Shown here piece after piece: positions 12,658 through 56,716 of a stretch of 64,000 bases of DNA. Within the stretch, counting starts at the first letter, position 1. Each line of letters starts with the position of its first letter. Location: positions 1-64,000 of the IMG/VR virus record IMGVR_UViG_3300025674_007777; one strand, given 5' to 3'. The notes beneath the pieces were generated by a model. The model was given only the letters and a program-made list of their open reading frames with translations, was not told the DNA's origin and did not search any database. This stretch comes from a virus. Position numbers and translations under genes: made by a program.

Positions 12658-12950
12658 CAGCTTTTCAGTTCTGTTACAAGATTATCAATCAGTGTACCAT
12701 CAATGCTATTATACGTCACATTGTAAGAACATCCATCAGCACTGCTAATGTATTGTGATCTAACACCTTTGAATATTCTTATGACATGATAATCACCTTC
12801 TGCTACGCCATCAGGTCTCAGACTTTTAACATTATCAATCAATGGCTGTAAAGAAGTCAGATCTGAATTATTTTTTGTTAGATGTTGATCTCCGTTAGCC
12901 AATTGGGCATAACCCTTTGCAAATATGTACAAACTATTGAAATTACTCAT
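12657..12950 (-). CDS. Small protein downstream of the fibre gene
   Basis: 97 residues, soluble, mixed composition, ending in a LIDNLVTELKS helix. Overlaps the fibre stop (ATGA type) and the HAD start, so translation is probably coupled. The position right after the fibre gene would suit a fibre assembly factor or cap, but there is no motif to support that. Confidence 0.5.
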   Translation of the reverse strand: MSNFNSLYIFAKGYAQLANGDQHLTKNNSDLTSLQPLIDNVKSLRPDGVAEGDYHVIRIFKGVRSQYISSADGCSYNVTYNSIDGTLIDNLVTELKS

Positions 12951-34879: not shown

Positions 34880-35809
34880 CTATTTTATTTCATTTAACAA
34901 TTTGATTAACATTGCCATGACATGAAGTTCCTTGTCAACAGCAAATGTGTCTTGATACTGTGCTTCTGCCAATATAAGAATGGCTGCGGCAATACTACCT
35001 TCCGCATAAGTATCTAGTTCATCAAATAAATATCTGTACAAGGCCGTAAAGTCCTTCACTTTGCTATCATTGATCAATTGACGCGCATCTCTGAATGCAG
35101 TTTTCTTATCAGATGGGCCTTTCAAGATCTCCAATAATTTAGTCATGTAATTTGCTTGAACTAAACTGTTATCATCTATCACTAACTGATTATCAACAAT
35201 CTGACTTTGACATGAATTCAATATGCGTCTGATGTCTGGATATCCCGAATTGATAACTGTAACTAGATCCTGATTGTCGTACTTAATACCACGTTCATTC
35301 AAAATGTTCACAATACGCTTAGCTACCTCCTTTCTATTAGGCGGTTCAATAGCAAATGCCTGGCATCTGGACTGTATAGGATCGATGATCTTTTCAACAT
35401 AGTTACATGTCAATATGAACCTACATGTCTTTGAGAAGGTCTCCATTAGATTACGAAGTGCTGCCTGACCATTAGGAGTCATGTAATCGGCCTCATCTAA
35501 TATCACAATCTTCCAACGACGAAATCCTACTGTACTTGCAAAGTTCTTGATCTTAGTTCTGACAGTTTCAATGTTGTTTTCATCCGATGCATTGATATAC
35601 ATTACATCTGAATCAACTCCTTTTGCTATAATCTTTGCTAATGTAGTTTTACCTGTCCCTGCTTGCCCGTAGAATAACAGATGCGGAACATCTCCTGATT
35701 CCAGATAAACTTTCACTTTGCTGACAACATGTTCATTGCCAACATAACCATCTAACGTGTCGGGCCGAAACGCTTCAACCCATAGTGTATTCTCCTGATT
35801 TCCGAACAT
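34880..35809 (-). CDS. 44: Clamp loader large subunit, gp44 (AAA+ ATPase)
   Basis: 309 residues, the usual length. Walker A GQAGTGKTTLAK (about 48-59), Walker B ILDEADYM (about 105-112), sensor 1 LTCNY and the arginine finger region QSRCQ are all present, as are the C-terminal collar helices. With gp62 it uses ATP to load the sliding clamp onto primed DNA. It lies just after dUTPase and two genes after gp45. Confidence 0.95.
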   Translation of the reverse strand: MFGNQENTLWVEAFRPDTLDGYVGNEHVVSKVKVYLESGDVPHLLFYGQAGTGKTTLAKIIAKGVDSDVMYINASDENNIETVRTKIKNFASTVGFRRWKIVILDEADYMTPNGQAALRNLMETFSKTCRFILTCNYVEKIIDPIQSRCQAFAIEPPNRKEVAKRIVNILNERGIKYDNQDLVTVINSGYPDIRRILNSCQSQIVDNQLVIDDNSLVQANYMTKLLEILKGPSDKKTAFRDARQLINDSKVKDFTALYRYLFDELDTYAEGSIAAAILILAEAQYQDTFAVDKELHVMAMLIKLLNEIK

Positions 35810-35815
35810 ATAAAC

Positions 35816-36253
35816 CTATTTTCCAGTTGAACCAAACCCTTCTTCTCCTCGCTCTGAACTTGATAGATTTTCCACCTCTAAAAGTTCGATATAAGGGATT
35901 GGCATAATAACTAATTGACCTACTCTGTCGCCATCTGCATATCGCTTCAATGATGGCCAATGAGCTTCTTCTTTGAATTTGAATCTCAATTTGATTTCAC
36001 CTCTGTAACCTGAATCTATCACACCTACTGAATTTGCTAACATCAGATCCTTTTTGGAATTTGATGATCTAGGAAATATCAATCCTACATGACCTTCTGG
36101 AATCTCAATGGCAATACCTGTATGATATTCTGCAAAGTGATGGCGTGTATCAATCTTATGCGTTACTGCAAACAGATCCATACCTGCATCGCCAGGATTT
36201 GCATATGAAGGCACTTTAGCTTTTGGTGTCAATTTTTTGAACTTGACCTGCAT
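35816..36253 (-). CDS. dut: dUTPase (deoxyuridine 5'-triphosphate nucleotidohydrolase)
   Basis: About 145 residues from MQVKFKKL (36253, TAATG with the gp45 stop); an in-frame codon at 36289 would add 12 residues over gp45. Five trimeric dUTPase motifs are seen: DAGMDLFAV, PRSSNSKKDL, GVIDSGYRGEIKL, RVGQLVIMP, and the C-terminal RGEEGFGSTG that closes the site. Removes dUTP and supplies dUMP, keeping uracil out of phage DNA. Confidence 0.95.
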   Translation of the reverse strand: MQVKFKKLTPKAKVPSYANPGDAGMDLFAVTHKIDTRHHFAEYHTGIAIEIPEGHVGLIFPRSSNSKKDLMLANSVGVIDSGYRGEIKLRFKFKEEAHWPSLKRYADGDRVGQLVIMPIPYIELLEVENLSSSERGEEGFGSTGK

Positions 36254-36969
36254 TAGCTTACTTGTAATTGGACTAGGAAATATGTACACTCATAATCAGA
36301 TCCGGTGAATGTGGCACGAGCCAATCCTGCGGCAGACACTTCCAACTTAGCCTGAGTTGCATCTTTGTTAGCCATCATCATTTCTTTTAGCAACGAAGCT
36401 GAAAAGCATGTCATGCCCATATCAGTAGCATCATCGGCATCGATATTGAATTTGATTCTATTGTTATTGATAGTGGAATAATTGATAACTAACTCTGCCG
36501 TACCGGCACTGACATGCACTCCAAAGTTATCTGCATCCGGAATAGCATTCTTTGCCTTAATAAACTTGTTACGAAAATCATCTGTGATAGGAATAGTCAC
36601 ATTCCAATCAGGCATATTCTTCAGTTCTGGAACCTGACGGATGATGCTAAGATCTGCCAACATGAATGTCATGTTAACTTCTCCATCTGAGATAGCTAAA
36701 CTGACAGCCTTGTCTCCAACCTTGTTCACATCAATGTCCACATCATCTGATACGGCTGATAACATTTTTGTTAGTAATGGAGTAGCATAAACTCCTAATT
36801 CAGATGTACCTAAATTAATGGAATCGCTTGTCAATGTTCCTATCACATTCTGATCATCTGATATGAACTCAATAGTACAACCGTTATCTGATGTTTTCCA
36901 TTTCACAGAATTCACTGCTCCATTCAGATAATAACGATTGATAAAACTTAATAATTCTGTTTTCTTCAT
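36253..36969 (-). CDS. 45: Sliding clamp, gp45
   Basis: 238 residues, normal for gp45. The N-terminus LLSFINRYYLNGAVNSVKWK and the beta-rich two-domain pattern (each with a long edge strand, such as VNMTFMLADLSIIRQVP) match T4-like phage clamps. It tethers the DNA polymerase and activates late transcription in T4. Given the late-type elements seen in this phage, a similar link is plausible, but no gp55/gp33 homologue is in this window. Confidence 0.85.
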   Translation of the reverse strand: MKKTELLSFINRYYLNGAVNSVKWKTSDNGCTIEFISDDQNVIGTLTSDSINLGTSELGVYATPLLTKMLSAVSDDVDIDVNKVGDKAVSLAISDGEVNMTFMLADLSIIRQVPELKNMPDWNVTIPITDDFRNKFIKAKNAIPDADNFGVHVSAGTAELVINYSTINNNRIKFNIDADDATDMGMTCFSASLLKEMMMANKDATQAKLEVSAAGLARATFTGSDYECTYFLVQLQVS

Positions 36970-39793: not shown

Positions 39794-39830
39794 TAAATAT
39801 AAGTTAAATAATTCAATTATCCTAACCAAA
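39794..39830 (-). promoter_or_regulatory. TTATATTTA -7-like box with distant TTTG
   Basis: TTATATTTA (39794-39802) ends 4 nt before the ATG at 39789. The nearest TTTG is 24 nt upstream of the box, longer than in the other members, so the -33 half is uncertain. Confidence 0.4.
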
Positions 39831-42305
39831 TGAGAAGAATTTTTGCAAATTGTTGTTATCTGGTATCTTGCCCCAATTCAATGCACCATAGAAGTCATCC
39901 AATTTGTTCTGAAATGCTGATCTGAATATCTTATCATGATCAATAAATTGGGTAACGTAATCATAAAGGGCTTCTGGATCTTCCATACCTTTCAGTGCCA
40001 TCACATCTAATCGCAATGGATTATTCTTCAGATATGTCCATCTGATCTTTTCGCCGTTCACAATCTCTCTGACATTGAACACATTATGATATCTAAGCAT
40101 GTCATTGTAATTCAGCGCTGCTTTGGCGTGAACCGGCGTACCCTTAGGCCTTGGAGCAAATGTGTCAGCCCCTGATATCTGATACTTCTTGATGTTCTTG
40201 ATACCCGTAGGGAACATGATCTGATCTATGGTCATGCCTTTGATATCATCTTTGAATTTCAATATCTTGGCATCCAGATCATTCTTCTCAATGTCATTCA
40301 GAATATCCTCCAGAACTTCGGCCATGAAGGATCGGAATGCAGGTGGGAATGAAGATCTTACCACATCCAATCCTTTGACATCTAATCTGGAAATGGTGTG
40401 CCCTTCCTGATTGATCAACCACTGAGCATATCTTTTCTTAGCAATCCAGAGACCTGCCTTTGCAACGAACTCCTGTTTGATGTCAAATCTATGTTTATCT
40501 ACATGATGGAACCGTTTAGCATAGATGTTATATGCATTGTTAATGAATGACTGCATTTCAGTTGCAATCTCAATGGTGCGATCGGCCATCCACTTTTCAT
40601 CAGTCTCATCAAATGTTTCAAACCGTTTCTCAATCAGAGGCAATGATGAGAAGAACACTGAATCAGTATCAATGTATATGTTATAATCTTTCTTCACTCC
40701 AAGTTCATTCTCATAGAACTTGTTACCAATGTCTGCAGTGAATTTGATCAACTGCTGGCCTGTACTTGTGATGGCGACAGCATTGTCGGGGTCAAAGAAT
40801 CTGAAAGTAGGATTACCCAATACTCCATAAAATGAATTCAGAAGAATCTTAGTCACCAACTGCATACGATCAAAGTATTCAGCTTGTTCCTTGTTACCCT
40901 CCTTCTCATATTTCTTACGCAGATTCTTATATTCAACTCGCTCATTGAACCAGTTATCAAGAATGGTTGGCAGAAAGCCATTCAGCTTCTTATCATAGAT
41001 AACACCGTTGGCTGCAATGGAATAATCATTCTCATCCAGATATTTTTTCAATGCAGTCGTATCCTCCCAACCATTCCATCCATCAGTGTAATGTTGACCT
41101 TTGCCCTTCACATAACTGTTGCCATCAAAATTATCTATCTTTGTGACTTTGGTTTCTGGTGATATGTTCAGAGTCATGATGATTGACGGATATAGAGATG
41201 TCAAATCCAAATCATATACCCATTTATATCTACCTGGATTAGGTGGCTTCACATATGCTCCTAACAAATCTAATGGTTCCGAAGAATCTCTGGTCGCACG
41301 TGATGGTGCCACAATGTTCAAGCGTTTCAGATATGTGAGAGCAGCTCCATCCAGATATCTGGTTGCAAATATGAAATCATCATATGCGACATGACCTTTG
41401 TGACAAATACCTCTTGCAAGATCAATCAATTTCATTTTCTCATCAAGCTCATAGACCAGATCCACATCCGTCATGTTGTAATCAATGAACTTCATGATAT
41501 CTTCTCTCATCAGATCATCCAATGAGCCATCATACTTCACTTTACCTTTGCCTAACTCTTTCTGTGAAATAGCTTCCAGAGAATAACTACTCTCCTGCGA
41601 ATATGTAAAGTTCTTATACAATGCCATGTAATCCAAACTAGCAACACCTGAAATACGATAACGATTTCTATGCTTCATCCAGATCACATCTTTGATAGGA
41701 GACAACTGCCTTGCTCGAGATTCTCCTAACAATTTGCTCATTCGATTGAACAGATAAGGAACGTCAAAGAAATCAATGTTCCAGCCTGTTATGATGGTTG
41801 GTTGTATCTCAACATATTTTCTGAGAAACTTATCTAACAGCTCATGCTCTGTGGCACAGGACACAACTGTCTTGTTGTCAATGATCTGATTCTCTACTGT
41901 ACCATCAGGATCTAAAATCCATACCACTCGCTGCTTCTTTGATGCATCCAATATTGCTATGGATGTAACTGCATTCTCTGCAGTCTCTGGAGTAGGAAAC
42001 TTATCTGTGGTGTCAACCTCAATATCAAAAAACAATGTTCGATGACCCGTTGATATCTCATCTGAATCAGTATACAGATCTATCAGTGTTCTTGTCTCTG
42101 GACTTATGTCTGCCTCATATAATCCAGGTTCTCCTCTTTCAAATTCAAATACCTTTTCTACCTGCTGCCCATCCAATGCCACATACTTACCATATCTGCT
42201 TTTGCGATAAGCATATGGCTTGTATTTGATCTTCTTGTAACCTGTAGTGTCGTCCCATAAATGTATGGTGTTATCACTTTTTCTATATGATATTGCTTGA
42301 TACAT
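39822..42305 (-). CDS. 43: DNA polymerase, family B (gp43)
   Basis: 827 residues, somewhat shorter than T4 gp43 (898). The 3'-5' exonuclease is intact: Exo I FFDIEVD (D94/E96), Exo II GWNIDFFDVPY, Exo III YNMTDVDLVY. Polymerase motifs: DLDLTSLYPSII (motif A), KILLNSFYGVLGN (motif B) and IDTDSVFF (motif C). The C-terminus LQKFFSFG ends in the clamp-binding peptide type. The main replicative enzyme. It overlaps the HPRT-like gene stop by one base (TAATG). Confidence 0.97.
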   Translation of the reverse strand: MYQAISYRKSDNTIHLWDDTTGYKKIKYKPYAYRKSRYGKYVALDGQQVEKVFEFERGEPGLYEADISPETRTLIDLYTDSDEISTGHRTLFFDIEVDTTDKFPTPETAENAVTSIAILDASKKQRVVWILDPDGTVENQIIDNKTVVSCATEHELLDKFLRKYVEIQPTIITGWNIDFFDVPYLFNRMSKLLGESRARQLSPIKDVIWMKHRNRYRISGVASLDYMALYKNFTYSQESSYSLEAISQKELGKGKVKYDGSLDDLMREDIMKFIDYNMTDVDLVYELDEKMKLIDLARGICHKGHVAYDDFIFATRYLDGAALTYLKRLNIVAPSRATRDSSEPLDLLGAYVKPPNPGRYKWVYDLDLTSLYPSIIMTLNISPETKVTKIDNFDGNSYVKGKGQHYTDGWNGWEDTTALKKYLDENDYSIAANGVIYDKKLNGFLPTILDNWFNERVEYKNLRKKYEKEGNKEQAEYFDRMQLVTKILLNSFYGVLGNPTFRFFDPDNAVAITSTGQQLIKFTADIGNKFYENELGVKKDYNIYIDTDSVFFSSLPLIEKRFETFDETDEKWMADRTIEIATEMQSFINNAYNIYAKRFHHVDKHRFDIKQEFVAKAGLWIAKKRYAQWLINQEGHTISRLDVKGLDVVRSSFPPAFRSFMAEVLEDILNDIEKNDLDAKILKFKDDIKGMTIDQIMFPTGIKNIKKYQISGADTFAPRPKGTPVHAKAALNYNDMLRYHNVFNVREIVNGEKIRWTYLKNNPLRLDVMALKGMEDPEALYDYVTQFIDHDKIFRSAFQNKLDDFYGALNWGKIPDNNNLQKFFSFG

Positions 42306-42805: not shown

Positions 42806-43463
42806 ATCCTCTGACAAATTCGTAATATTCATTTCTGGTCGCAGAATCATCTTTGAATGCGCCAGTTAACTTACTAGTCTTCATGCTAGCGCCACCGTGC
42901 TTCACACCACGACATTGCACGCAATTATGAGTGGCTTCTATCATTACTGCCACACCTGCATTGTCTTCTATGATGGCATCAACTGCATGATGTATTGCAA
43001 CAGTTAACTGTTCCTGTATAGCACCTCTTCTGCCGAAATGCTCTACCAATCGATTCAGTTTTGATAATCCAATCACTTTACCATCTTTACCTGGTATGTA
43101 TGCAACATGTACCACACCCATGATAGTTTGATGATGATGTGAACACATGGAAGTCAAAGGAATACCTCCTTCAAACACAATACCATCATATCCATCAGAT
43201 GGGAATGTAGTTATCTCAGGTGGGGCATCATATCGACCAGCCCAAAGATCTCTCACATATGCTTTTGCAACACGATAAGGTGTTTTATCTGAATTCGGAT
43301 CATTGCGCCAATCCACACCTAAGGCATCTAAAAATTTACCAAATGCTTCTTCAGCATCTGCAATCATTAGTTGTTTCTCTTCTTCTGTCAAAGGCCTACC
43401 TTCAGCTGCGCCATTGGCATAACCGGCCTTTACTAGTTCTAAATTTACTTTGTTTTCACACAT
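42792..43463 (-). CDS. folE: GTP cyclohydrolase I
   Basis: 223 residues. Opens GTP to 7,8-dihydroneopterin triphosphate, the first step toward queuosine-type 7-deazaguanines. Motifs: PLTSMCSHHHQTIMGVVHVAYIP (zinc Cys and two His), GLSKLNRLVEHF, RRGAIQEQL, and ATHNCVQCRGVKH (second zinc Cys). The zinc and catalytic residues look intact, and the C-terminal TRNEYYEFV is typical. Serves the QueD/QueE pair encoded nearby. Confidence 0.93.
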   Translation of the reverse strand: MCENKVNLELVKAGYANGAAEGRPLTEEEKQLMIADAEEAFGKFLDALGVDWRNDPNSDKTPYRVAKAYVRDLWAGRYDAPPEITTFPSDGYDGIVFEGGIPLTSMCSHHHQTIMGVVHVAYIPGKDGKVIGLSKLNRLVEHFGRRGAIQEQLTVAIHHAVDAIIEDNAGVAVMIEATHNCVQCRGVKHGGASMKTSKLTGAFKDDSATRNEYYEFVRGYGTN

Positions 43464-43490
43464 ATAATTCTTCAGTGTTTTTATTACGAA

Positions 43491-43787
43491 TTATTGATTT
43501 GATACCATTACAATTTCTGATTCTCTAACTAAAACATATGTCTCATCATCAAATGACACTTCATTGTCTCCTTTCAACCATCGTGATGCAACTAATACTG
43601 TATCATCAACTTTACAAGTCATTGCAATTCTGTCTCCTGTCTGAGTGAACAATCCTGGGCCAACAGCTATGACATCTGCATATTCATAATTGTTAGACTC
43701 AGTGGTCAGAATTATACCACCTTTAGTAGTTTCCTGACCCTCTTGCTTTTTGAGAAGAACATAATCGCCCATAGGTTTCATTTTCAT
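43491..43787 (-). CDS. GroES-like co-chaperonin (gp31 analogue)
   Basis: 98 residues. PMGDYVLLKKQEG, TKGGIIL, YADVIAVGPG (the GKVxAVGxG block) and a late DETYVLVRESEI match GroES. The mobile loop lies at about 15-35 (QEGQETTKGG). Phage-encoded co-chaperonins such as T4 gp31 replace GroES so that host GroEL can fold the capsid protein. No GroEL gene is in this window. A bipartite promoter-like element lies 18 nt upstream. Confidence 0.85.
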   Translation of the reverse strand: MKMKPMGDYVLLKKQEGQETTKGGIILTTESNNYEYADVIAVGPGLFTQTGDRIAMTCKVDDTVLVASRWLKGDNEVSFDDETYVLVRESEIVMVSNQ

Positions 43788-43805
43788 ACTCGTTCCTTTA
43801 TACTA

Positions 43806-43837
43806 TAAATTTAAGAAATATTTGGCAATTAACCAAA
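43806..43837 (-). promoter_or_regulatory. Bipartite promoter, TTTG-N19-TTAAATTTA
   Basis: TTTG at 43834-43837 and TTAAATTTA at 43806-43814, 19 nt apart, 18 nt before the GroES ATG at 43787. The -7 box is TTAAATTTA, one base off the group consensus. Confidence 0.5.
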
Positions 43838-43854
43838 TTTATACGCATTTTTTT

Positions 43855-44631
43855 CTACACCATTCTCTCAGTTCCGAACGCCATAATATGGCTTCTTCCA
43901 GTAAACCTCCATCCTCTATCTCTAACAAAGTTCATTACTACAGGATAGGATTCTTGTAGAGCTGGAATATCATCACCTGCTGGCATACACCAAACCTTTT
44001 CATCTGGTATCTCTAGATCTTTAACGAATTCTTCTACTTCCGGAAGAATGCTTAGTTCTTTATCTAATACAGGTTTGATATGATAATCTTTATGATATTC
44101 GATAGAAGCTTTGATTGCTTCTTTATTCAATCGCTTACTGTTATGTTTTATAATCATCTTTTCATCCACTATTTCTCCTAATGGAGTTTTTGTTCCTACT
44201 ACAGGAATGGAATTGCTGAACTTAGGTGAAATAGATAAAAGATCAATAGGATAATCAGTTTCTAAGAAATGAGATCCTTCAGTTTCAATGGTAATGAAGA
44301 TTCCTCGCTCATGAGCAAAATGAGTTAATTCATTTACTAGAGCAGGATGCATTGTAGGAGAACCTCCTGTTAGCATCATCTCTTTGATATGAGGATTATC
44401 ATCATACATTTTGATAATGTCGTTAAAACAGAAGGTTCCTTTTTCCGGATGGATGGAGGTGTACCATGAATCACACCACCCGCCTTCACCGAAAAAACAT
44501 CTGTGAGTACATCCTGATGTTCTAACCACAATGGTAGGATAACCTTGTCTTGAGCCTTCAGATTGAACTGCCGTATAGAGTTCTAATACCTGTAAAGGCT
44601 TTTCATAACTTCTTAATCTTTTACACTTCAT
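43855..44631 (-). CDS. queE: QueE, 7-carboxy-7-deazaguanine synthase (radical SAM)
   Basis: About 258 residues from ATG at 44631 (GTG at 44640 is an alternative). Converts 6-carboxytetrahydropterin to CDG. The cluster-binding Cys lie in SGCTHRCFFGEGGWCDSWYTS (C-x3-C-x7-C; the canonical CX3CX2C is lengthened, as in QueE variants). LYTAVQSEGSRQGYPTIVVR is the substrate region, MMLTGGSPTMHP the SAM-binding GG motif, and FITIETEGSHFL the ETNG-type strand. Overlaps QueD by 11 nt. Confidence 0.9.
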   Translation of the reverse strand: MKCKRLRSYEKPLQVLELYTAVQSEGSRQGYPTIVVRTSGCTHRCFFGEGGWCDSWYTSIHPEKGTFCFNDIIKMYDDNPHIKEMMLTGGSPTMHPALVNELTHFAHERGIFITIETEGSHFLETDYPIDLLSISPKFSNSIPVVGTKTPLGEIVDEKMIIKHNSKRLNKEAIKASIEYHKDYHIKPVLDKELSILPEVEEFVKDLEIPDEKVWCMPAGDDIPALQESYPVVMNFVRDRGWRFTGRSHIMAFGTERMV

Positions 44632-45088
44632 ATATTGCACTATTTTTTTCGTGTTCTTTAACTTCTACTGATACTACACGACATCTGCCATTCGTATCTT
44701 TTGTCACCCACTCATTGAGTTTATGATAAAAATATTCTGCAAACTTCTCTGCTCCTACAGCAGGTAACACTCGTAACTGAACTATGCCATGTTGATCCAA
44801 AGCTTCGAAAGTTGACAATGCAGGATCATCCTCTGATAAGATAACTGTATGATCTAACATGTATGCCAACCAGTCTTTAAGATTCATGCCATCGATAAGT
44901 TCCTCAGATCTTTTTGCTCTGCCGAAATCAACTACCCAGTTTCTGAAATCTAGATCGCCTTCATAGGTCACTTTCAGAGATACTGAATATCCATGTAGAA
45001 ATTGGCAATGTGTATCAATTGCTTTCCATTGACGAAAGCAAGTAGAATAACCATCATATATTTTTGTAGATCTAAATCTTTCCTGCAT
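44621..45088 (-). CDS. queD: QueD-like 6-carboxytetrahydropterin synthase
   Basis: 155 residues, T-fold family. Catalytic Cys in THCQFLHGYS with the zinc His; MLDHTVIL gives the catalytic Asp/His, and VEVKEHEKNSAIYEV the C-terminal Glu that anchors the pterin. The first zinc His found in the common SAAH motif is not obvious here (the sequence is STCFRQWKA), a variant I recall from other phage QueDs. Converts dihydroneopterin triphosphate to 6-carboxytetrahydropterin. Confidence 0.85.
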   Translation of the reverse strand: MQERFRSTKIYDGYSTCFRQWKAIDTHCQFLHGYSVSLKVTYEGDLDFRNWVVDFGRAKRSEELIDGMNLKDWLAYMLDHTVILSEDDPALSTFEALDQHGIVQLRVLPAVGAEKFAEYFYHKLNEWVTKDTNGRCRVVSVEVKEHEKNSAIYEV

Positions 45089-47192: not shown

Positions 47193-49049
47193 CTACACAA
47201 TTTCACATGCACCGCCAGCACATGCAATCTCACCTTTCAGATCTGTCTCATCTTCTGTTTCAACAATTCTTGAAAGATCCACATCAACAAGGCTCTGCAT
47301 TAGCTGATCATATTGTTCTTCTGTGATGTCCTCAAATGGAGCCTGCTTATAAGTACCTCCCATATAAGGTAGTACTGAGAGACCATTATAAAATTCACGA
47401 TTCTCCCACATCCAACTGCCTACAGCATCCCATTCATGTTCACGCACTGAAATGGTGGCTGAAATGTTATGACTGTTAGCACCTGTTCTATGTCCTGGGC
47501 GAATCCAATCCTTTGTGACATGTTTCACTCGCTCCAACAATTGTAGAGGTGATTCTGTTCTGAGGATTGCCGTCTCAGGAGATTTCTGTGGTACTGATAT
47601 CACAGCAGTGTCATGTGGTCTGAAATATTCATCTTCAATAAGCTCTGGATGATTTTCTACCAAATAAGAATAAATTGCTTCATTCTTGCCAACACGTACT
47701 CTTCTGATATAGAAATCATTGTGCCATGCATGAATACCTGATGATGTTCCCAATGTCAATGATGTGGTTCCTGCAGGCTTAACTGTGGTACATCTTGCTG
47801 CTTTGTTGATACCGATGAGACCAGCAACTCTAACGTTCTCATCTTTCACAACCTTAGCAGCTTCCTTCATGTTATAATCCAATATAACACCGGAACCGAT
47901 GCCTGTCATTGAAATACCTACCAATGCATCCTTCTCAGTGGTTCTTTGCCATACCGGACGCAGATAATGAAAATCTGTGTATCCTGCTTGTAATGTACCT
48001 ATCAGAGATGCTGCACGTACTCGCTCATTCAGATCTTCCTGAGATTCAATATTGGAAACATTCACTTCAGTTAGATTACAGAACTGGAATGGTCTCAGTC
48101 CAATCTCACAACATGGATTTGTTCCCCAATCTTTGTCATTGGAAAGATAAATGCCAGGTTCGCCGGCTCCACTCAACTCAATACGCTTCCAAAGATCCAT
48201 GAAGAAATCTTTTTCCAAGCGATGGCGAAGTAACACAGCTGAATTATTGGCACGACCTCTCTGTGGATTGTTCTCCCACCAATTACCAGACTTGCATCCA
48301 ATCATTTCATCATCATCTGCTGAGAACAAACTGATCAAAGCTGCTCGACGAATACCTCCTGCCAACACTGCATCTGCAATGTGACAAATGATGTCATGCA
48401 CTTCCAATGGAGTCAATTTATCACCGTTCTGCTTTTCATTCAGGATACCTTCCACTTTCACCAAGCATTCTCTCAGTGGCTGTGGTCCAGGTGCCTTACC
48501 TCCTGATGTTATGAGTCTAGCACCTTTTGGTCTGATGTCTGAAAAGTCAAACTTGATCTTTGATCCGCTATAGAAATACGTCTTCACTAACGCCTTAACT
48601 GCATCAGCCCAACCTTCAATTGAGTCTGCAATCAGGAATCTTCGTGTACGAGCTGGATTAGGTTTGTTGATCTCAGGTAGTTTGTCTACATGATGACGCT
48701 GGACCGAATATCCAACTCCTGTACCTCCTAACAATAGGAACATCACTTCACCAAATACTCTCCAATCATCAATTGGTGCAAATGCACAATTGTATACACG
48801 GTTAGGTGATATCTCAATAGGCTTACCAGCAAACTGCATACTACGCATTGATGGTAAAACTTTCTTGTCATATACTAATTTATATGCCGTTTCAATTGCT
48901 TCTGACAATGCAGGGTATTTTTTCAAATGCATTGCCTTGTTCCGATCCACAAGTTCTGTCCATGTCTCTCTCCTGTTCTTTTCAGGCAGAAACTTAGCAT
49001 ACTTCATGTGTACGGTGATATCACTGAGTATCTGGGTAGATATATCCAT
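47193..49049 (-). CDS. nrdJ: B12-dependent (class II) ribonucleotide reductase
   Basis: 618 residues. Makes deoxyribonucleotides using adenosylcobalamin. Features: LPSMRSMQFAG, NCAFAPIDDW, GGTGVGYSVQ, NPCCEIGLRPFQFCNLTEVN (the active-site Cys pair and the radical Cys region), and the C-terminal CAGGACEIV redox pair. Length and pattern fit the small monomeric RTPR type. There is no NrdB small subunit in the window. Dependence on host or environmental B12 follows. The upstream 124-bp gap to the helicase holds no clear riboswitch. Confidence 0.9.
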   Translation of the reverse strand: MDISTQILSDITVHMKYAKFLPEKNRRETWTELVDRNKAMHLKKYPALSEAIETAYKLVYDKKVLPSMRSMQFAGKPIEISPNRVYNCAFAPIDDWRVFGEVMFLLLGGTGVGYSVQRHHVDKLPEINKPNPARTRRFLIADSIEGWADAVKALVKTYFYSGSKIKFDFSDIRPKGARLITSGGKAPGPQPLRECLVKVEGILNEKQNGDKLTPLEVHDIICHIADAVLAGGIRRAALISLFSADDDEMIGCKSGNWWENNPQRGRANNSAVLLRHRLEKDFFMDLWKRIELSGAGEPGIYLSNDKDWGTNPCCEIGLRPFQFCNLTEVNVSNIESQEDLNERVRAASLIGTLQAGYTDFHYLRPVWQRTTEKDALVGISMTGIGSGVILDYNMKEAAKVVKDENVRVAGLIGINKAARCTTVKPAGTTSLTLGTSSGIHAWHNDFYIRRVRVGKNEAIYSYLVENHPELIEDEYFRPHDTAVISVPQKSPETAILRTESPLQLLERVKHVTKDWIRPGHRTGANSHNISATISVREHEWDAVGSWMWENREFYNGLSVLPYMGGTYKQAPFEDITEEQYDQLMQSLVDVDLSRIVETEDETDLKGEIACAGGACEIV

Positions 49050-49173: not shown

Positions 49174-50529
49174 TCACCCGAAATCTTTTCCAATTGTTTC
49201 ATTGTATTTTCGGGCAAGCAATTGTCTAGCCAACGTATTCCCATTATCCATTTGCTTTTGCGTCTGTTGACCGTTAATGGACGTATCCGTATATATGTTA
49301 AATTGCCCGTTACTAAGATTCATCTTGCTTGGCAGTGTGATACCATCTGGACCAAAACGATTCTTGATGATGTGCCAACGACCTGTTCCAGCTAATTTGT
49401 CCTCAACCTTTCTGGACAATGATATGATGAAATCTGCAACCATCACTTTACCATATGATTCAGCAACTTTACTTGCATCAATTACATCTTCCTCCAATGC
49501 AGATCTGTTTGCCTGAGATGCTGTCCATACTGGCAATTCATATTCGCCGGCCATACCTCTGAGATCTTCATATATACTTTCCAGTTCATGTCGTTTCTCT
49601 GTCCCATTGCCTCGTAACAGGTCAGCATAGTCCACAATGATCACATCAGGCTTCTTACCTTGCATTATGCATTTCTCAACATGAGCACGAATACCTAACA
49701 CTGAAGTGGTCTTGGTTGGATAATGTTTGATGATCAGATCGCCATCTATCTTAGCCAACCGTTCCTTCACTTCAGACTGATAATGTTTCAGATTCTGATT
49801 TGCAATACCTGTTATCACAGAATCATATCTGAGACCTACATATGCTTCATTGAGCTCCAATGTATAATGCAGAACTGTTTTACCTTTCTTCACAGCAGAT
49901 GCGCCAATGTTCATCAATGCCCATGATTTACCAATACCGGCCGGAGCAACCATCACACCTAACTCCCCTTTGCCTAGGCCGCCATCTGTAAGATCATCTA
50001 TCACGTCCCAACCAGTTGATTGAACATGACGAACAGCGTCTGTATAACGTTCTTCAATGGCAGTCATGTAATCATGTCCAATATCTTTGTCTGCTCCTGC
50101 TTTTAGAGCATCATCTATCTGAACTTTGATTTCTTCATAACGACCATGTTTGAGTAATTCAACACTGCTCATGATGGCTTTCTTGATCTCCTGATTCTTA
50201 CAGAAGTCCAAAGCCTGCACCTTTATGAACTCCAGATCATCTGATTCAGTGTACTTCCAGGCATCCTTCAAATGGTCTTTGATCTGTGTAGCAAGAACAT
50301 CATGATCAACATCATCCAGTTTCACTTTCATCACATCCAATGATGGTGATGCCTTATGCTCCAAATGATATTTCAATACAGTGTCGACTATCCAATGATT
50401 AGCCTCTGACTCAAAATATTTCGGAGATAGGATATCTGCAATCTGTTGCAAAAATGTCTTGTCAGTCATCAGTGATGTGATCACCTTGATCTGAAATGAA
50501 TATCCATAGGACGAAAGACGGTCGGTCAT
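49174..50529 (-). CDS. 41: Replicative DNA helicase, gp41 (DnaB family)
   Basis: 451 residues. RecA-like core with Walker A APAGIGKSWALM (about 193-204), LHYTLELNEAYVGLRYDS (the LELS-type motif), VIIVDYADLL (Walker B) and the arginine-finger region FIISLSRKVEDK. The N-terminal domain is helical. The hexameric 5'-3' helicase at the fork. A -7-like box ends 4 nt before ATG. Confidence 0.9.
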   Translation of the reverse strand: MTDRLSSYGYSFQIKVITSLMTDKTFLQQIADILSPKYFESEANHWIVDTVLKYHLEHKASPSLDVMKVKLDDVDHDVLATQIKDHLKDAWKYTESDDLEFIKVQALDFCKNQEIKKAIMSSVELLKHGRYEEIKVQIDDALKAGADKDIGHDYMTAIEERYTDAVRHVQSTGWDVIDDLTDGGLGKGELGVMVAPAGIGKSWALMNIGASAVKKGKTVLHYTLELNEAYVGLRYDSVITGIANQNLKHYQSEVKERLAKIDGDLIIKHYPTKTTSVLGIRAHVEKCIMQGKKPDVIIVDYADLLRGNGTEKRHELESIYEDLRGMAGEYELPVWTASQANRSALEEDVIDASKVAESYGKVMVADFIISLSRKVEDKLAGTGRWHIIKNRFGPDGITLPSKMNLSNGQFNIYTDTSINGQQTQKQMDNGNTLARQLLARKYNETIGKDFG

Positions 50530-50533
50530 ACGT

Positions 50534-50564
50534 TAAATATAATAAAATTTTTCAAATAATCAAA
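50534..50564 (-). promoter_or_regulatory. Bipartite promoter, TTTG-N18-TTATATTTA, near-leaderless
   Basis: TTTG 50561-50564 and TTATATTTA 50534-50542, 18 nt apart, ending 4 nt before the helicase ATG (50529). The -33 half shares TTTGATTATTTGAAAAATTT with the element at 6839-6870. Confidence 0.55.
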
Positions 50565-51609
50565 TGCTTCCATAAGCATTTAGTGACATAAATGATGAAT
50601 TCAGCCAACTGTCCAGATCTTTGATAACCGTGTACATCTTATCACGCATGAACATCTTCTTGAACTCCAGCACATCCAGTTTCTGAATGTCCTGTTTACA
50701 CATATTCAGAGCCAACATTTTGGCATTGCCATGAATATCCACTTCTTTGAGTTGCATCAATCTGTAATTCAGATCCAACTGATCTTTAGCAGCTGCCAAC
50801 GTGTTCACAACTTTGTATTTGGAATCTTGCTGCACTGCATAGTCAATGATCTCATCAACTGACACTTCTCGGTCCTCTGTCAACATTGGAAAATACTTGA
50901 TCAGTGATTTCAGGCCTACTCCTTTGATACCCTCAATATTATCCGATTTATCCCCCGTTATCGCCCTGTACAAGAGGTAGTTCTTTTCATTTATACCTAT
51001 TTCTTCTTGTAGAAGACTTGGAGTATATAAGCGCTTTTTGATGGGGCTCCATACACTGATTCTGTGATTAACCAACTGCAGAAAATCTCTGTCTGTGGAC
51101 ACAATTGTACACTTCTGATGATCTTCTGTGTACACTTCATTTGCAATGTATGCAATGATGTCATCTGCTTCCACATTGTCAATGGACATGGTGGTAACTG
51201 GTAAACAGTTCAGATACTGTATCATTCGACCAAATTGCCGGCGCATACTTTCCTGTTCATCCTCCAATGATGCAAACTCCTGATATCTGTTGAAAGCAGT
51301 TTTGTTTGCTCTATTGGCTTTGTAGTTCGAGTAAATGCTCTTTCTACGCTTGGAACCTCCCTTACCATCAAACACAATGATACATCTGGTTGGTTTCAGT
51401 TGTCGTATCACTGCACCTATTGATCTGAGAAATCCAGTTACTCCTCCAATATGTTGTCCATCATCATTGAGAGCAGGAACGGCAGAGAACACTCTGATGA
51501 AAGTGTTCAATCCGTCTATAACCATTATATGAGAATTCTTATCTCTACCCGTTCCATCCTGCCGTTCCTGCTCAATCTGCTGAAGCAGCTCTTTATACCG
51601 TTTCTGCAT
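50560..51609 (-). CDS. rnh: T4 RNase H-like 5'-3' exonuclease (FEN/PIN family)
   Basis: 349 residues. Removes RNA primers. Acidic metal-binding motifs: HIMVIDGLNTF, CIIVFDGKGGSKRRK, DNVEADDIIAYIA, STDRDFLQL and ITGDKSDNIEGIKGVGLKSL (helix-hairpin-helix). The basic arch segment SNYKANRANKT is present. All metal ligands look intact. It overlaps uvsX by one base and ends in the helicase promoter. Confidence 0.9.
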   Translation of the reverse strand: MQKRYKELLQQIEQERQDGTGRDKNSHIMVIDGLNTFIRVFSAVPALNDDGQHIGGVTGFLRSIGAVIRQLKPTRCIIVFDGKGGSKRRKSIYSNYKANRANKTAFNRYQEFASLEDEQESMRRQFGRMIQYLNCLPVTTMSIDNVEADDIIAYIANEVYTEDHQKCTIVSTDRDFLQLVNHRISVWSPIKKRLYTPSLLQEEIGINEKNYLLYRAITGDKSDNIEGIKGVGLKSLIKYFPMLTEDREVSVDEIIDYAVQQDSKYKVVNTLAAAKDQLDLNYRLMQLKEVDIHGNAKMLALNMCKQDIQKLDVLEFKKMFMRDKMYTVIKDLDSWLNSSFMSLNAYGSI

Positions 51610-52745
51610 TAACCTTCTTCATTAACAAACTCTTCATCAATCTCGATGTCATCTACTCCAAAATCTTCTCCTGGCTTGTACTTCAGGATATATGCTTTAC
51701 AGATGGCATCATAGATCTCTTGTTTCAATCCATCTTCTTCAGCTATTTTCTTCTCAAAATCTTTTGATAGAAACTTCACATCAGAACCATCTGTTCGAGT
51801 ATATGTATACCATGCACCGGACTGATTAAGTAGTTTGTAGTCCTTCATAACATTTAGCCATCCACCGTAATTGTCAATACCTGACTCAAAATAGATGTCA
51901 TAATCGATTGACTTCAATGGCGGCCCCATTCTGTTCTTCACAACCTGAACTCTGGTCTTGATACCAATGACCTGATCAACACCATCCTTCTTCATTTTGA
52001 TCTGTCCTACTGATTTCAGACGTAATCGAACTGAAGCGTGGAATGGAATGGCCTTACCACCTGATGTTGTATACGGATCACCAAATGCAACACCAAGTCT
52101 TGTTCTGAGCTGATTTGTGAATAACAAACAGATCTTTTCACGACCAATCATGTTAGTGATCTTACGCATACCTTTGCTCAGAATGATTGCCTTGGAAGTG
52201 GCATAACCATCTTTGTCAAATTCTTTGGCCATCTCAATCTTAGTGGATGCTCCCATCACTGAATCAACAACAATGGTAACGAGTCTGTCTTTACTGCTTT
52301 TTCGAACACCTTCCACAATGCTTTCAATTGCTTCAAAAACATCTTCAATGGTGTCCAAAGGCACATACAACATCTTCTCAAGATCCAGACCAATGGCTTC
52401 CAGAAAATCACGGCTAACTGCATTCTCAGTATCAATATATACTGCCAATCCTCCTTGTTTCTGAGTACTGGCCAATGCATGAGCTGCTAACAGAGACTTA
52501 CCAGATGCTTCCAATCCTGTTATCTCAGTGATACGCCCGACCGGAAAGCCTCCATTCTCTCTGTTTGAGATTGCAAGATCCAACATATCAGATCCTGTCG
52601 GAATCCATCCTCGCACTTCTGAAGGCGAATCAGTGTCCTGGTTAAGAAAGTAAGCTGTCTTGTAGCCAGTATTCTTAAACTTCTTGTTTATGGCACTGGC
52701 GAGTTCTCCAGCCAGAGAGTCCTGTAACTCATCTTTAGACTTCAT
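51609..52745 (-). CDS. uvsX: UvsX-like RecA recombinase
   Basis: 378 residues. Walker A GLEASGKSLLAAH (about 59-71), LAVYIDTENAVS (the Mg-Glu strand), VTIVVDSVMGAS (Walker B) and LFTNQLRTRLG with the ATP-coupling Gln, then TTSGGKAIPFHASVRL as in L2. An acidic C-terminal tail. It has an unusually strong Shine-Dalgarno, AAGGAGG, 4 nt before ATG. Catalyses strand exchange for recombination-dependent replication. Confidence 0.92.
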   Translation of the reverse strand: MKSKDELQDSLAGELASAINKKFKNTGYKTAYFLNQDTDSPSEVRGWIPTGSDMLDLAISNRENGGFPVGRITEITGLEASGKSLLAAHALASTQKQGGLAVYIDTENAVSRDFLEAIGLDLEKMLYVPLDTIEDVFEAIESIVEGVRKSSKDRLVTIVVDSVMGASTKIEMAKEFDKDGYATSKAIILSKGMRKITNMIGREKICLLFTNQLRTRLGVAFGDPYTTSGGKAIPFHASVRLRLKSVGQIKMKKDGVDQVIGIKTRVQVVKNRMGPPLKSIDYDIYFESGIDNYGGWLNVMKDYKLLNQSGAWYTYTRTDGSDVKFLSKDFEKKIAEEDGLKQEIYDAICKAYILKYKPGEDFGVDDIEIDEEFVNEEG

Positions 52746-52758: not shown

Positions 52759-53532
52759 TTAATCGTTAAATAATTCATCAAATGCTGATGACACATCATC
52801 AACACGATTTACCGTCGAAGGCACTTCACCTTCTTTTGGTGCTGGAGGAATTCCGTCTGAACTAGCATCAGATGATGCTTCTTCTGGATTCAACCATGTC
52901 TCCAAAGCTTCTTTGAGTTCATCATATGTTGGTTCCTTGAAGATCTCTGTGAGAGCCTGCTGATTCTTTGCAATCTGCTCAGCAACATTTCGATCTTCAG
53001 TCATTGGAGAAACATTTGGTTTCACTCTGATAGCTGTCTTAGGATATGCTCCTGGGCCTTCTGCCGGAGTGAACTCAACAACAATGTCACGTCCTCCCAT
53101 TGGATCTGTGATGTCACCATAATCAGGATCTGCAATGAATCCTAGAAGTTCAGTGTACACAGTTTTTCCAAAGCCCCAAAATTTCACACCTTCAGATTCT
53201 TGGCCTCGAACGATGATTGGCGCATACACACGCATCTTTGGTTCCATCTTTTTGCCAAGTTTCCATTCATCTGAATTACCTGAAGCTTTGAGTTTCTCAG
53301 TGAACTCCACAACTGGATCAGCCTTGCCAAATGTTGTAGGAGACAGAAAGTTCTTCTTGCCTAAGTTGTAATGAAAATAAAGTTCCTGGAATGGGTTTGC
53401 TCGATCATGCTGATAAGGCACAATTCTAATAACCTGCTTGCCCGGTTCTGGGCGCCATAATGTTTGACGGCGGTTGCCTGTCGTTTGAAGTTGATTAAGC
53501 TTCCTTTTAATCGCATCTAAATCAATTGCCAT
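52759..53532 (-). CDS. 32: Single-stranded DNA-binding protein, gp32
   Basis: 257 residues. N-terminal LAST-like start AIDLDAIKRKLNQLQ, an OB core (RIVPYQHDRANPFQELYFHYNLG and MRVYAPIIVRGQE), and an acidic C-terminus (ASSDASSDGIPPAP, then DDVSSAFDELFND) that recruits other replication proteins. The gp32 zinc-finger Cys set is not obvious here. An AAGGAA Shine-Dalgarno-like site precedes the ATG. Confidence 0.85.
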   Translation of the reverse strand: MAIDLDAIKRKLNQLQTTGNRRQTLWRPEPGKQVIRIVPYQHDRANPFQELYFHYNLGKKNFLSPTTFGKADPVVEFTEKLKASGNSDEWKLGKKMEPKMRVYAPIIVRGQESEGVKFWGFGKTVYTELLGFIADPDYGDITDPMGGRDIVVEFTPAEGPGAYPKTAIRVKPNVSPMTEDRNVAEQIAKNQQALTEIFKEPTYDELKEALETWLNPEEASSDASSDGIPPAPKEGEVPSTVNRVDDVSSAFDELFND

Positions 53533-53654: not shown

Positions 53655-54041
53655 TTAAACATCCAATCGTTTGAGCATTTTCAATTTGATTTGTCTGAGT
53701 TGGTCACCATCCGTTAACAACAGAGAGTTTCTGTAGAGTTGCCATGGAATGATGAAACTCTTGTCCAGAACACCATTGTTACATTCCTTGATCACTGTGT
53801 TGAGAGCATTGATGCTATACAATGTGTTGCTCTCTTTCTTTCTGTGAATGGATATGGTGTTAGCAGATCTTCTAGGCGATGGTAACACAATGTTGTAGGT
53901 TATGTACAGATCATCTGGACGCTCCTGATCACAGAACAGAAACATACGATTCTCACTGAGGTCATATGTTGCAATGATATGTTCTGTGATGATGTCCTGA
54001 TTGCGTCTATGTGCAAATGTACATAGTAATTGTGTTTTCAC
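53655..54041 (-). CDS. Conserved T4-like phage hypothetical, GTG start
   Basis: 128 residues from GTG at 54041, after an AAGGA site. The motif NTISIHRKKESNTLYSINALN (about 63-83) is one I recall as near-invariant in a T4-like marine phage family without known role. Precedes gp32. Confidence 0.65.
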   Translation of the reverse strand: MKTQLLCTFAHRRNQDIITEHIIATYDLSENRMFLFCDQERPDDLYITYNIVLPSPRRSANTISIHRKKESNTLYSINALNTVIKECNNGVLDKSFIIPWQLYRNSLLLTDGDQLRQIKLKMLKRLDV

Positions 54042-54088: not shown

Positions 54089-55354
54089 TTAATTCAGAGC
54101 AACACCTGGATTGGTATTATGCCACATAAAACTGCTTTCTGGTTTCTTTGAACCTAATGTAATGCTGCCAGCATCGACTACATCATCAATATCATCTCTA
54201 GTCACAACTATGAATGATGTAGACATATATTTAGGCGGTCTATGCTCATGAAAAATAATCGTATCAACATTGATCTTGTCCATATATGATTCCAGATTAG
54301 TTTTGGCCAATGCTCTACCAACATCGACTACATCATTATAATTCAGTGATGCATCAAAATATTTTCTTGCAACAGAGTCTTTATTGAAAAAAATGTTCCC
54401 AATACCATCCTGTACATTATCAATGAAGTCAGCTTTTGATATAACATCGTTATCAACCAACAGTTCATATGCATTTTTTATGGCATATGCAATATTTCTG
54501 TTATCAGGATTCTTGAGAAATTCTTCCTTGGCTTCCGCATCAACACTCAACATATTAGATAAGAAATTATTTTTTATGTTAAGTTCTTTACCTCGACCAG
54601 CTTGTTGGCCTAGGCGACCACCTTTTCCTTTCAATTCAGTGGTTTGACCATCCACGACTATATCACCACCTGATGTGGAATTGAAAACATTGTCAAATAA
54701 AAGTATGAGAGCAATTTCAGCCGGTCCGGTCGCACTACCACCCGCATCAGCACCTGGTTGTATTTTTATCAGATTACTAATTGTTTTGTCATTTAATCCT
54801 GTCAATTTGCTGATATCACCTTTACCGGCAGCATCCCATTTTAAATCTTTAGGAGATTCAAAATATTCTATCACTTCTTTGGCATTTGGTAGTTTTGCTA
54901 TCTTATTAAAAATAATGTTAACAGCGTCTTGTCCAATCTGATAATTACCTGATGTGATATTTTTCTTTTCAAAATACTGAAGAACAGGTGCTTTGAATGC
55001 GACACTGTTGATGATCTGATTTATTTTAAAAAGATCCTCCGAATCAAGATCTGTATTGTTAATTAGTTTGACAATGTCATCTTTTGAAACCTTATCATAA
55101 TCTTCAGTTAAAACATCATCTGATATGTACTCATAGAACATTTCATTTTCTGATACTGGATCATTTTCTTCAATATCTTTTTCGACCGGTACTGCGTCTA
55201 AGAAGCCTTGATCTAAGATGTCCGGCGACTCCTTGATATGTTCTGATAACACTTCGTGGAAGATATGCATTTCTTCCGTGCTATATGGTGGTTCAGCATA
55301 GCCTTTAGGCAAACGGAAGAACCATTCCTGTATGACTTTTTCTTTGATGTCCAT
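54089..55354 (-). CDS. Possible PD-(D/E)XK-fold protein of T4-like phages
   Basis: 421 residues. The central block GGDIVVDGQTTELKGKGGRL (about 229-248) has the D-x(n)-E-x-K spacing of PD-(D/E)XK nucleases (D, then ELK), flanked by ATGPAEIALILLFDNVF. The C-terminus has FHEHRPPKYMSTSFIVV. A nuclease or inactive structural relative would both fit. An ATATTTATA element is 10 nt upstream of the start, so late expression and a structural role is equally likely. Confidence 0.5.
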   Translation of the reverse strand: MDIKEKVIQEWFFRLPKGYAEPPYSTEEMHIFHEVLSEHIKESPDILDQGFLDAVPVEKDIEENDPVSENEMFYEYISDDVLTEDYDKVSKDDIVKLINNTDLDSEDLFKINQIINSVAFKAPVLQYFEKKNITSGNYQIGQDAVNIIFNKIAKLPNAKEVIEYFESPKDLKWDAAGKGDISKLTGLNDKTISNLIKIQPGADAGGSATGPAEIALILLFDNVFNSTSGGDIVVDGQTTELKGKGGRLGQQAGRGKELNIKNNFLSNMLSVDAEAKEEFLKNPDNRNIAYAIKNAYELLVDNDVISKADFIDNVQDGIGNIFFNKDSVARKYFDASLNYNDVVDVGRALAKTNLESYMDKINVDTIIFHEHRPPKYMSTSFIVVTRDDIDDVVDAGSITLGSKKPESSFMWHNTNPGVALN

Positions 55355-55364
55355 AGGATTTTTG

Positions 55365-55373
55365 TATAAATAT
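55365..55373 (-). promoter_or_regulatory. ATATTTATA late-type promoter-like element
   Basis: Ends 10 nt before the ATG at 55354 and begins at the stop of the family A polymerase gene. Confidence 0.45.
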
Positions 55374-56716
55374 TAGTTAATTCTTTTAGTCATGTCCTGC
55401 ATTGTGTGAAGATCTGCCCCTGCTTTGATTTTCACAGGAAAGGCTCCTCGCTCTGACATCACATCTTTGAGTTTCAGTATCAGCTCTTTGCCATCTGTGA
55501 GAGCATAATCAAACAACATGCTGTCATATGTATATAGTATGAACTTGCTGTCATGACCTTGCAGTGTGTGCATTATTCTGTGTATCACCGTTATGTTGTG
55601 TTCTGTTTCAGTGGCCTGCAGCATGTAATTGAACAGCTTGTTGGCATTCATGTCATCTGGCAAAGCATCTTTATGTAAAGGCCGTTCAAATATAGGAGTC
55701 ATAACTTTTCCATTGGCTTTGAACTCTTTCCATAACTTCTGCACATAGTCATGGCATGCTGCAAAGAACGGAATGCTTCGAAATTCTTTGTCAATGTTTC
55801 CGTATAGCAGTCTGAAAGTGATCTGCTTGGAACGCTCATACTGTTCTTCTGTGAGATCATCACCGAAATAATATTTGCCTAAATGTTCGTGAACAGATCC
55901 TTCTGGAAAGTTATATCCCAGTATCTTGGCAATGAGTCGCACATGAAATGCATCAAAGTCCATTTCCAACAGCATGCCTCTCTGATGTCTGCTCACAAAT
56001 GCGCTCCTGCAACCATTCTCCTTGTTTAATGCAGCATAATTCACTCCTCCATGCTTGTTGGATGGCCGGCCTGTGGCAGTGTACAGATTGTATTCACTGA
56101 ATGTCTTCGAAGATCTGGTTGCAGTGAAATGCTGTTCAAACACTGACCTGTCAATCTGAAGTCCAGACTGTTCAATGGCATGAAAGGCTGCAATGGACTG
56201 AGATTCATATTGCTGAAATGCTCTGCTGTGACGATGTGTTTCATAACTACACATGAACACTTCTCTCATTGCTCGGCAACGCTCCATATGCTTGGTCATT
56301 GGCAACCAGTCATAACTGTTTGTGGTTCCACTCCACCAGGCTCCCCAGGCATTGTGACATGCTGTGTTGCTGTCATCTAATGGCAGAGGCTTTCCTGTTT
56401 GCCACCAATGCATCATGTCAGCATCCACCGTTCTATACGGGTAGTATGCCATTAATCGCTTTCTGCCCAATGCATAGATCACCTTGGAACTTGTAAGGTG
56501 TTGCAGAAGGTCGTTACTTTGGTTTACGCAGTCGAAATGATGGAATGGAACTATCCAATCCTGTGCATCTGTGATGGTGTATATGTAAATGAAACTCAGT
56601 CTGGTGTCAGCATAATGACGGAAAGCGTCTGAGAACATTGGAATCCAGAAACTATCTGATTCTCTGAGAGATTCCTGCAATGACTTGATGTCGCCTGGAT
56701 GTTCAGCTATTATCAC
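55373..56716 (-). CDS. Divergent family A DNA polymerase
   Basis: 447 residues from a GTG start. Polymerase signatures in order: TATGRPSN (213-220), YAALNKENGCRSAFVS (the L-Q-N-I-P...R-x-x-F region), motif A EMDFDAFHVRL (D253), motif B K297-x3-F301-x3-YG, a QATETEHN block like the finger QGTAAD, and motif C YTYDSMLF (D398). The two catalytic Asp residues are kept, but the usual E in motif A, R in motif B and H-E in motif C are replaced. The N-terminal 180 residues look like an exonuclease fold lacking its carboxylates, and the thumb is very short. A second DNA polymerase beside PolB is unusual for a T4-like phage. Confidence 0.8.
   Translation of the reverse strand: MIIAEHPGDIKSLQESLRESDSFWIPMFSDAFRHYADTRLSFIYIYTITDAQDWIVPFHHFDCVNQSNDLLQHLTSSKVIYALGRKRLMAYYPYRTVDADMMHWWQTGKPLPLDDSNTACHNAWGAWWSGTTNSYDWLPMTKHMERCRAMREVFMCSYETHRHSRAFQQYESQSIAAFHAIEQSGLQIDRSVFEQHFTATRSSKTFSEYNLYTATGRPSNKHGGVNYAALNKENGCRSAFVSRHQRGMLLEMDFDAFHVRLIAKILGYNFPEGSVHEHLGKYYFGDDLTEEQYERSKQITFRLLYGNIDKEFRSIPFFAACHDYVQKLWKEFKANGKVMTPIFERPLHKDALPDDMNANKLFNYMLQATETEHNITVIHRIMHTLQGHDSKFILYTYDSMLFDYALTDGKELILKLKDVMSERGAFPVKIKAGADLHTMQDMTKRIN

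What the first reader, a model, noticed from the sequence alone, without database searches (positions are those of the whole stretch)
55373..56716. Second DNA polymerase, divergent family A with altered catalytic motifs
TATGRPSN, motif A, motif B and motif C are in order with both catalytic Asp kept, but H-E of motif C are replaced and the exonuclease carboxylates are gone, while the thumb is very short. It stands beside PolB in a T4-like genome. It may be a translesion or primer-extending enzyme, or one suited to modified templates.
Basis: partly seen in the sequence, partly recalled or inferred. Interest (0 to 1): 0.68.

Follow-up and report, generated by a model that had tools for sequence, protein, structure and literature searches.

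The report
Thumbless, proofreading-dead phage DNA polymerase (divPolA1)
This T4-like phage carries, besides its main DNA polymerase, a second one that has lost its proofreading site and its DNA-gripping "thumb" and has an unusual, fully conserved histidine where relatives keep the acidic residue that excludes RNA building blocks; the family was described in 2024 from predicted structures, but I found no biochemical test of it.

Summary
The ORF at 55373-56716 (- strand, 447 aa, GTG start) is a real, selected family-A polymerase homologue: PF00476 passes its cut-off (35.9 vs 34.3 bits), dN/dS is 0.04-0.09, and the AlphaFold2 model (pLDDT 94) matches Pol I over its whole length (Z 27). Both catalytic Asp are invariant in 85 relatives. 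No acidic pair is left in the strand that carries the exonuclease site, and about 92 residues of thumb are missing.

It is a new member of divPolA1 (Yutin et al. 2024, PMC11348598), whose reference phage, Flavobacterium phage immuto, encodes its homologue (31% identity, E 3e-59). It is therefore not a new kind.

Added here: (i) a family signature, with E710 replaced by His (85/85), H881 by Tyr (84/84) and R754 mostly by Tyr, against E/D, H and R in 110 ordinary PolAs; (ii) hundreds of members in viral contigs; (iii) a 128-aa companion gene, near it in 59/60 loci; (iv) DnaG primase in relatives, against a primase role; (v) no fixed link to 7-deazaguanine genes.

Most likely role (inferred, about 40%): accessory short-patch, gap-filling polymerase working with the neighbouring gp32, RecA and 5'-nuclease. 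TLS and ribonucleotide-tolerant primer extension are untested rivals.

The parts
55373..56716 (-). divPolA1-type family A DNA polymerase, 447 aa, GTG start
56177..56716 (-). remnant 3'-5' exonuclease domain (aa 1-180), fold kept, no acidic residues in the first strand
56081..56170 (-). truncated thumb region (aa 183-212); about 92 residues shorter than E. coli Pol I
56057..56080 (-). TATGRPSN motif (aa 213-220); R217 corresponds to Pol I R668
55937..55960 (-). motif A DFDAFHVR (aa 253-260): catalytic D253, H258 at the steric-gate position (Pol I E710)
55799..55840 (-). motif B (aa 293-306): Y293 (Pol I R754), K297 (K758), F301 (F762), Y305-G306
55595..55630 (-). N363-Y-x-x-Q367-x-x-E370-T region (Pol I N845..Q849)
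55508..55537 (-). motif C LYTYDSMLFD (aa 394-403): catalytic D398, Y397 (Pol I H881), S399 (Pol I E883)
53655..54041 (-). 128-aa companion protein of unknown function, in 59/60 divPolA1 loci; HRKKxxNTLYxxNALN motif
54089..55354 (-). 421-aa protein of unknown function between them, present in only 18/75 loci
52759..53532 (-). gp32-like ssDNA-binding protein
51609..52745 (-). RecA/UvsX-like recombinase
   Evidence: homologue annotated as RecA/RadA recombinase in Mel-JY01 at the same place
50560..51609 (-). stand-alone 5'-3' exonuclease (FEN/Pol I N-domain type)
49174..50529 (-). DnaB-like replicative helicase
39822..42305 (-). regular family B DNA polymerase (gp43-like) of the same genome; ends in ...LQKFFSFG
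36253..36969 (-). sliding clamp (gp45-like)
34880..35809 (-). clamp loader (gp44-like)

Best explanation
The gene encodes a divPolA1-type DNA polymerase: a Pol I-like palm and fingers on a dead exonuclease scaffold, without the thumb that grips duplex DNA and without proofreading. SHOWN by sequence and model: family membership, both catalytic Asp, loss of the exonuclease acids of the first strand, loss of the thumb, His at the steric gate, strong purifying selection, coexistence with a full PolB-clamp-clamp loader replisome. INFERRED: it is an active but distributive, low-fidelity polymerase that makes short patches while PolB copies the genome. Its genomic partners are the gp32 ssDNA-binding protein, a RecA-type recombinase, a stand-alone 5'-3' exonuclease and the helicase, so its most likely job is that of a split Pol I: filling gaps behind removed primers and at recombination intermediates, with the 5'-nuclease supplied as a separate protein. 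The missing grip would have to come from a partner; the 128-aa companion and gp32 are candidates. Identity as divPolA1 is about 97% likely, catalytic activity about 80%, this particular role about 40%.
For: Family and fold. Direct homology to the divPolA1 of phage immuto, the group's reference phage. Catalytic Asp, Lys, Phe, Tyr and Gln invariant in 85 members. Thumb and exonuclease loss. Selection. Neighbours: 128-aa companion 59/60, gp32 49/52, RecA 40/44, FEN 32/34, DnaB 24/26. PolB in 12 of 15 carriers, a full PolA in immuto. Clamp and clamp loader. Motif C without Glu compatible with activity: Tt72 polymerase, PMC9324360.
Against: I found no biochemistry for any family member in the held library. 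R754 and H881, invariant in 110 ordinary PolAs, are replaced, so activity may be weak or differ in kind. No clamp-binding C-terminus is evident. Co-location shows a shared module, not a shared reaction; the same context would suit recombination-dependent synthesis, TLS or priming.
Confidence: 0.45

Rival explanations
1. Translesion or modified-template polymerase: the exonuclease-dead, open active site copies damaged or deazaguanine-modified DNA where PolB stalls.
For: Loss of proofreading and of the duplex grip is typical of TLS enzymes; QueE is found in 9 of 14 carriers; the window has FolE, QueD-like and QueE genes.
Against: Mel-JY01 and the 484-kb phage carry the gene without detectable QueC, QueE or DpdA; the gene is in the replication and recombination cluster in nearly all loci.
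Confidence: 0.2
3. Catalytically dead or vestigial polymerase that serves as a DNA-binding scaffold in the replication or recombination complex.
For: R754, H881, E883, thumb and exonuclease acids are all lost.
Against: D253, D398, K297, F301, Y305 and Q367 are invariant across very divergent members, which is not expected without catalysis.
Confidence: 0.12
4. Phage RNA polymerase derived from a PolA, as single-subunit RNAPs are.
For: Altered steric gate; Yutin et al. raise this idea for the other variant, divPolA2.
Against: The best structural matches are Pol I, Pol theta and Pol nu; there is no extra N-terminal promoter-binding domain, as aa 1-180 align with the Pol I exonuclease domain.
Confidence: 0.05

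Closest known systems
divPolA1 (Yutin et al. 2024, Virol J 21:200, PMC11348598), e.g. [quoted passage not shown]
   Same: Sequence homology over 88% of the length (E 3e-59), truncated thumb, inactive exonuclease, conserved palm residues, second to a regular polymerase, same downstream gene order.
   Different: Only about 31% identical. This phage uses PolB where immuto uses PolA; its RecA-like gene is far from immuto's. Steric-gate His and the 128-aa companion are not discussed in the section of the paper read here.
E. coli DNA polymerase I / Bst large fragment (PF00476)
   Same: Fold over the whole length (Z 27, rmsd 3.6 A over 408 residues to mycobacterial Pol I); TxTGR, motifs A, B and C; both catalytic Asp; separate 5'-nuclease in the gene cluster; Bst also has a dead exonuclease (own knowledge).
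   Different: No thumb; E710 to His, R754 to Tyr, H881 to Tyr, E883 to Ser or Ala; no fused 5'-nuclease.
divPolA2 of barbaviruses (same paper)
   Same: Extra, diverged PolA in a genome with PolB, without a normal thumb.
   Different: divPolA2 has an unrelated N-terminal domain and a variable gene context; here the N-terminal part keeps the exonuclease fold and the context is fixed.
Thermus phage Tt72 polymerase (PMC9324360)
   Same: Motif C D-S instead of D-E, active.
   Different: Tt72 keeps the steric-gate Glu (E389) and strong proofreading.

Membership tests
Family A DNA polymerase (PF00476) | Profile match over the curated cut-off | tested here: met
   35.9 bits vs 34.3; profile of 76 members hits Klenow at 7e-9
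Family A DNA polymerase (PF00476) | TxTGR, motif A Asp, motif B K-F-YG, motif C Asp in order | tested here: met
Family A DNA polymerase (PF00476) | Pol I fold | tested here: met
   pLDDT 94.1; E 1e-17 and Z 27 to Pol I
Family A DNA polymerase (PF00476) | DNA synthesis in vitro | not testable with these tools
   needs purified protein
divPolA1 | Homology to a published member | tested here: met
   tblastn to immuto phages E 3e-59, 88% coverage; immuto named as the group's reference
divPolA1 | Truncated thumb | tested here: met
   35 residues vs about 127 between the IExxG Glu and the TGR Arg
divPolA1 | Exonuclease acids replaced | tested here: met
   strand aa 22-28 without Asp/Glu in nearly all of 85 members; registers of exonuclease motifs II and III could not be fixed by sequence
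divPolA1 | Encoded in addition to a regular DNA polymerase | tested here: met
   PolB at 39822-42305
divPolA1 | Conserved replication genes downstream | tested here: met
   gp32, RecA, FEN, DnaB order
Pol I orthologue (canonical) | Thumb, E710, R754 and H881 present | tested here: not met
divPolA2 | N-terminal globular domain unlike any known domain | tested here: not met
   model residues 1-440 align with Bst 301-876, exonuclease fold included
Primase | De novo primer synthesis | not testable with these tools
   a separate DnaG homologue exists in 6 of 14 records, including the immuto and Mel-JY01 complete genomes

The most novel reading that the evidence does not exclude
divPolA1 is a Pol I that has been converted into a ribonucleotide-accepting, thumbless primer-extension (or mixed RNA/DNA) polymerase: the invariant His at the steric gate reads the ribose, and the co-conserved 128-aa protein acts as a dedicated subunit that replaces the missing thumb.
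Probability: 0.1. Interest if true: 0.75.

Novelty: new member of a known kind. Interest (0 to 1): 0.42.

Why it matters
The family was noted in 14 phages in 2024; here it appears in hundreds of viral contigs, so a polymerase without a thumb is a core replication gene of a large phage group. It is a natural test of which parts of Pol I are dispensable, and the invariant His at the steric gate predicts a measurable change in sugar selection. The 128-aa companion gives a concrete candidate for what replaces the thumb.

Tried and rejected
Single-sequence PDB search gave nothing; the profile was needed. hhalign could not fix the register of the exonuclease domain, so exonuclease motifs II and III were not mapped residue by residue. 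Primase role: weakened by DnaG in relatives; the window's own record is a 72-kb fragment, so absence there means nothing. Modified-template role: weakened. The companion protein: no Pfam, NCBIfam, convincing PHROG or PDB sequence match; its model is confident (pLDDT 94) but structural matches are weak (best Z 6.2). Its co-occurrence with divPolA1 (the same six phage records; 30 of 32 loci with enough upstream sequence) could be mere shared ancestry: other fast-evolving genes of the cluster are also lineage-restricted, while gp32 is widespread. Relatives in cellular contigs are few and MAG-derived, probably phage contigs that were binned with bacteria.

Full report
WHAT IS THERE. The ORF at 55373-56716 (- strand) is 447 codons from a GTG start. 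It passes the curated Pfam cut-off for family A polymerases (PF00476, 35.9 bits vs 34.3). A profile of 76 relatives matches E. coli Klenow at E 7e-9 and Bst and Taq polymerases behind it. The window lies in a 72,471-base viral record, so the genome is a fragment.

RELATIVES. In 50,697 phage records good matches (E 2e-36 or better) occur only in four Flavobacterium immutovirus records, one 484-kb uncultured phage and Microcystis phage Mel-JY01; the remaining matches are marginal (E 0.09 or worse). Close relatives differ from the window gene with dN/dS of 0.04-0.09, so the protein is made and used.

ANATOMY. In 85 non-identical members the catalytic Asp of motif A (D253) is invariant (85/85) and that of motif C (D398) in 84/84; R217, K297, F301, Y305, G306 and Q367 are also fixed. 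These align with Pol I R668, D705, K758, F762, Y766, Q849 and D882. Four positions depart from the norm: the steric gate E710 is His in 85/85, H881 is Tyr in 84/84, E883 is Ser or Ala in 84/84, and R754 is Tyr in 83/85. In 29 bacterial and 81 phage PolAs taken as controls, position 710 is always Glu or Asp, 754 always Arg and 881 always His; 883 varies. The controls are limited: the 81 phage PolAs are all of the immuto type. The thumb is missing: from the Glu of I-E-x-x-G to the Arg of T-x-T-G-R there are 35 residues here, 23-43 in the family, about 127 in Pol I. The N-terminal 180 residues keep the exonuclease fold in the model but the first strand has no acidic residue.

STRUCTURE. AlphaFold2 gives pLDDT 94.1 and pTM 0.90. 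Foldseek finds Pol theta, mycobacterial Pol I and Klenow at about 1e-17; VIA-align gives Z 27.0, 3.6 A over 408 residues to mycobacterial Pol I, and similar values to Bst over model residues 1-440. Viral predicted structures give the same family.

CONTEXT. Downstream come a variable gene (18/75 loci), a 128-aa gene (59/60), gp32 (49/52), RecA (40/44), a stand-alone 5'-3' exonuclease (32/34) and DnaB helicase (24/26); the order is the same in immuto and Mel-JY01. The window also has PolB, sliding clamp and clamp loader. PolB is present in 12 of 15 carriers examined; immuto has a full PolA instead. A DnaG primase homologue is in six of 14 records, including immuto, Mel-JY01 and the 484-kb phage. 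Deazaguanine genes are present in many but not all carriers.

COMPARISON WITH THE KNOWN. Yutin et al. 2024 (PMC11348598) describe divPolA1 in 14 phages around Flavobacterium phage immuto: conserved palm residues, truncated thumb, exonuclease aspartates replaced, encoded besides a regular polymerase, conserved replication genes downstream. Every one of these points is met here, as far as it could be tested, and the immuto protein is a direct homologue. The finding is a new member of this kind. The His gate, the breadth of the family and the companion gene are additions; the section of the paper read here does not discuss them, and its figures were not available to me.

FUNCTION. Activity is likely because the catalytic set is invariant over very divergent members, and because Tt72 polymerase works with Ser after the motif C Asp (PMC9324360). 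A polymerase without proofreading or thumb should be distributive and error-prone; placed next to gp32, RecA, FEN and helicase, short-patch synthesis in lagging-strand maturation or recombination is the simplest role (inference, about 40%). TLS, ribonucleotide-tolerant primer extension and a scaffold role remain open.

COMPANION GENE. The 128-aa protein at 53655-54041 is found in exactly the six phage records that carry the polymerase and, in reverse, 30 of 32 of its loci with enough upstream sequence carry the polymerase. Shared ancestry can explain this, and its fold (pLDDT 94) has no convincing match. It is the best lead for a partner that replaces the thumb.

Noticed in passing
53655-54041 (-): 128-aa protein with an HRKKxxNTLYxxNALN motif, tightly co-conserved with divPolA1; confident model without a convincing structural match.
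   Followed up: yes
54089-55354 (-): 421-aa protein between divPolA1 and the companion, with a ...GGDIVVDGQTTELKGKGG stretch that could be a PD-(D/E)xK-like nuclease site; no Pfam or phage-record match, present in only 18 of 75 loci.
   Followed up: partly
42305-45088 (-): Phosphoribosyltransferase, GTP cyclohydrolase I, QueE-like radical SAM and 6-pyruvoyl-tetrahydropterin synthase genes next to PolB: part of a deazaguanine pathway; no QueC or DpdA found in the fragment.
   Followed up: partly
L009 record LR756508.1, 260623-266900: PolB matches of the 484-kb phage fall in two frames (1022 and 625 aa) about 4 kb apart, suggesting a split or interrupted PolB.
   Followed up: no
L107-L186: All 81 immuto-type phage PolAs have Leu at the F762 position and Gln at E883 of Pol I.
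   Followed up: no
47193-49049 (-): Ribonucleotide reductase matching phrog_367 with the B12-dependent insertion domain, following the helicase gene; immuto has NrdF/NrdA in that place.
   Followed up: no
26825-27676 (-): NeuB-type sialic acid synthase among several glycosyltransferases, a surface-sugar gene group in a phage.
   Followed up: no
12947-16507 (-): 1186-aa protein with a weak match to an ice-binding beta-roll model, probably a tail fibre.
   Followed up: no
L092, L097: divPolA1 contigs sit in MAGs labelled Nitrosopelagicus and Rickettsiaceae; most likely mis-binned phage contigs.
   Followed up: no
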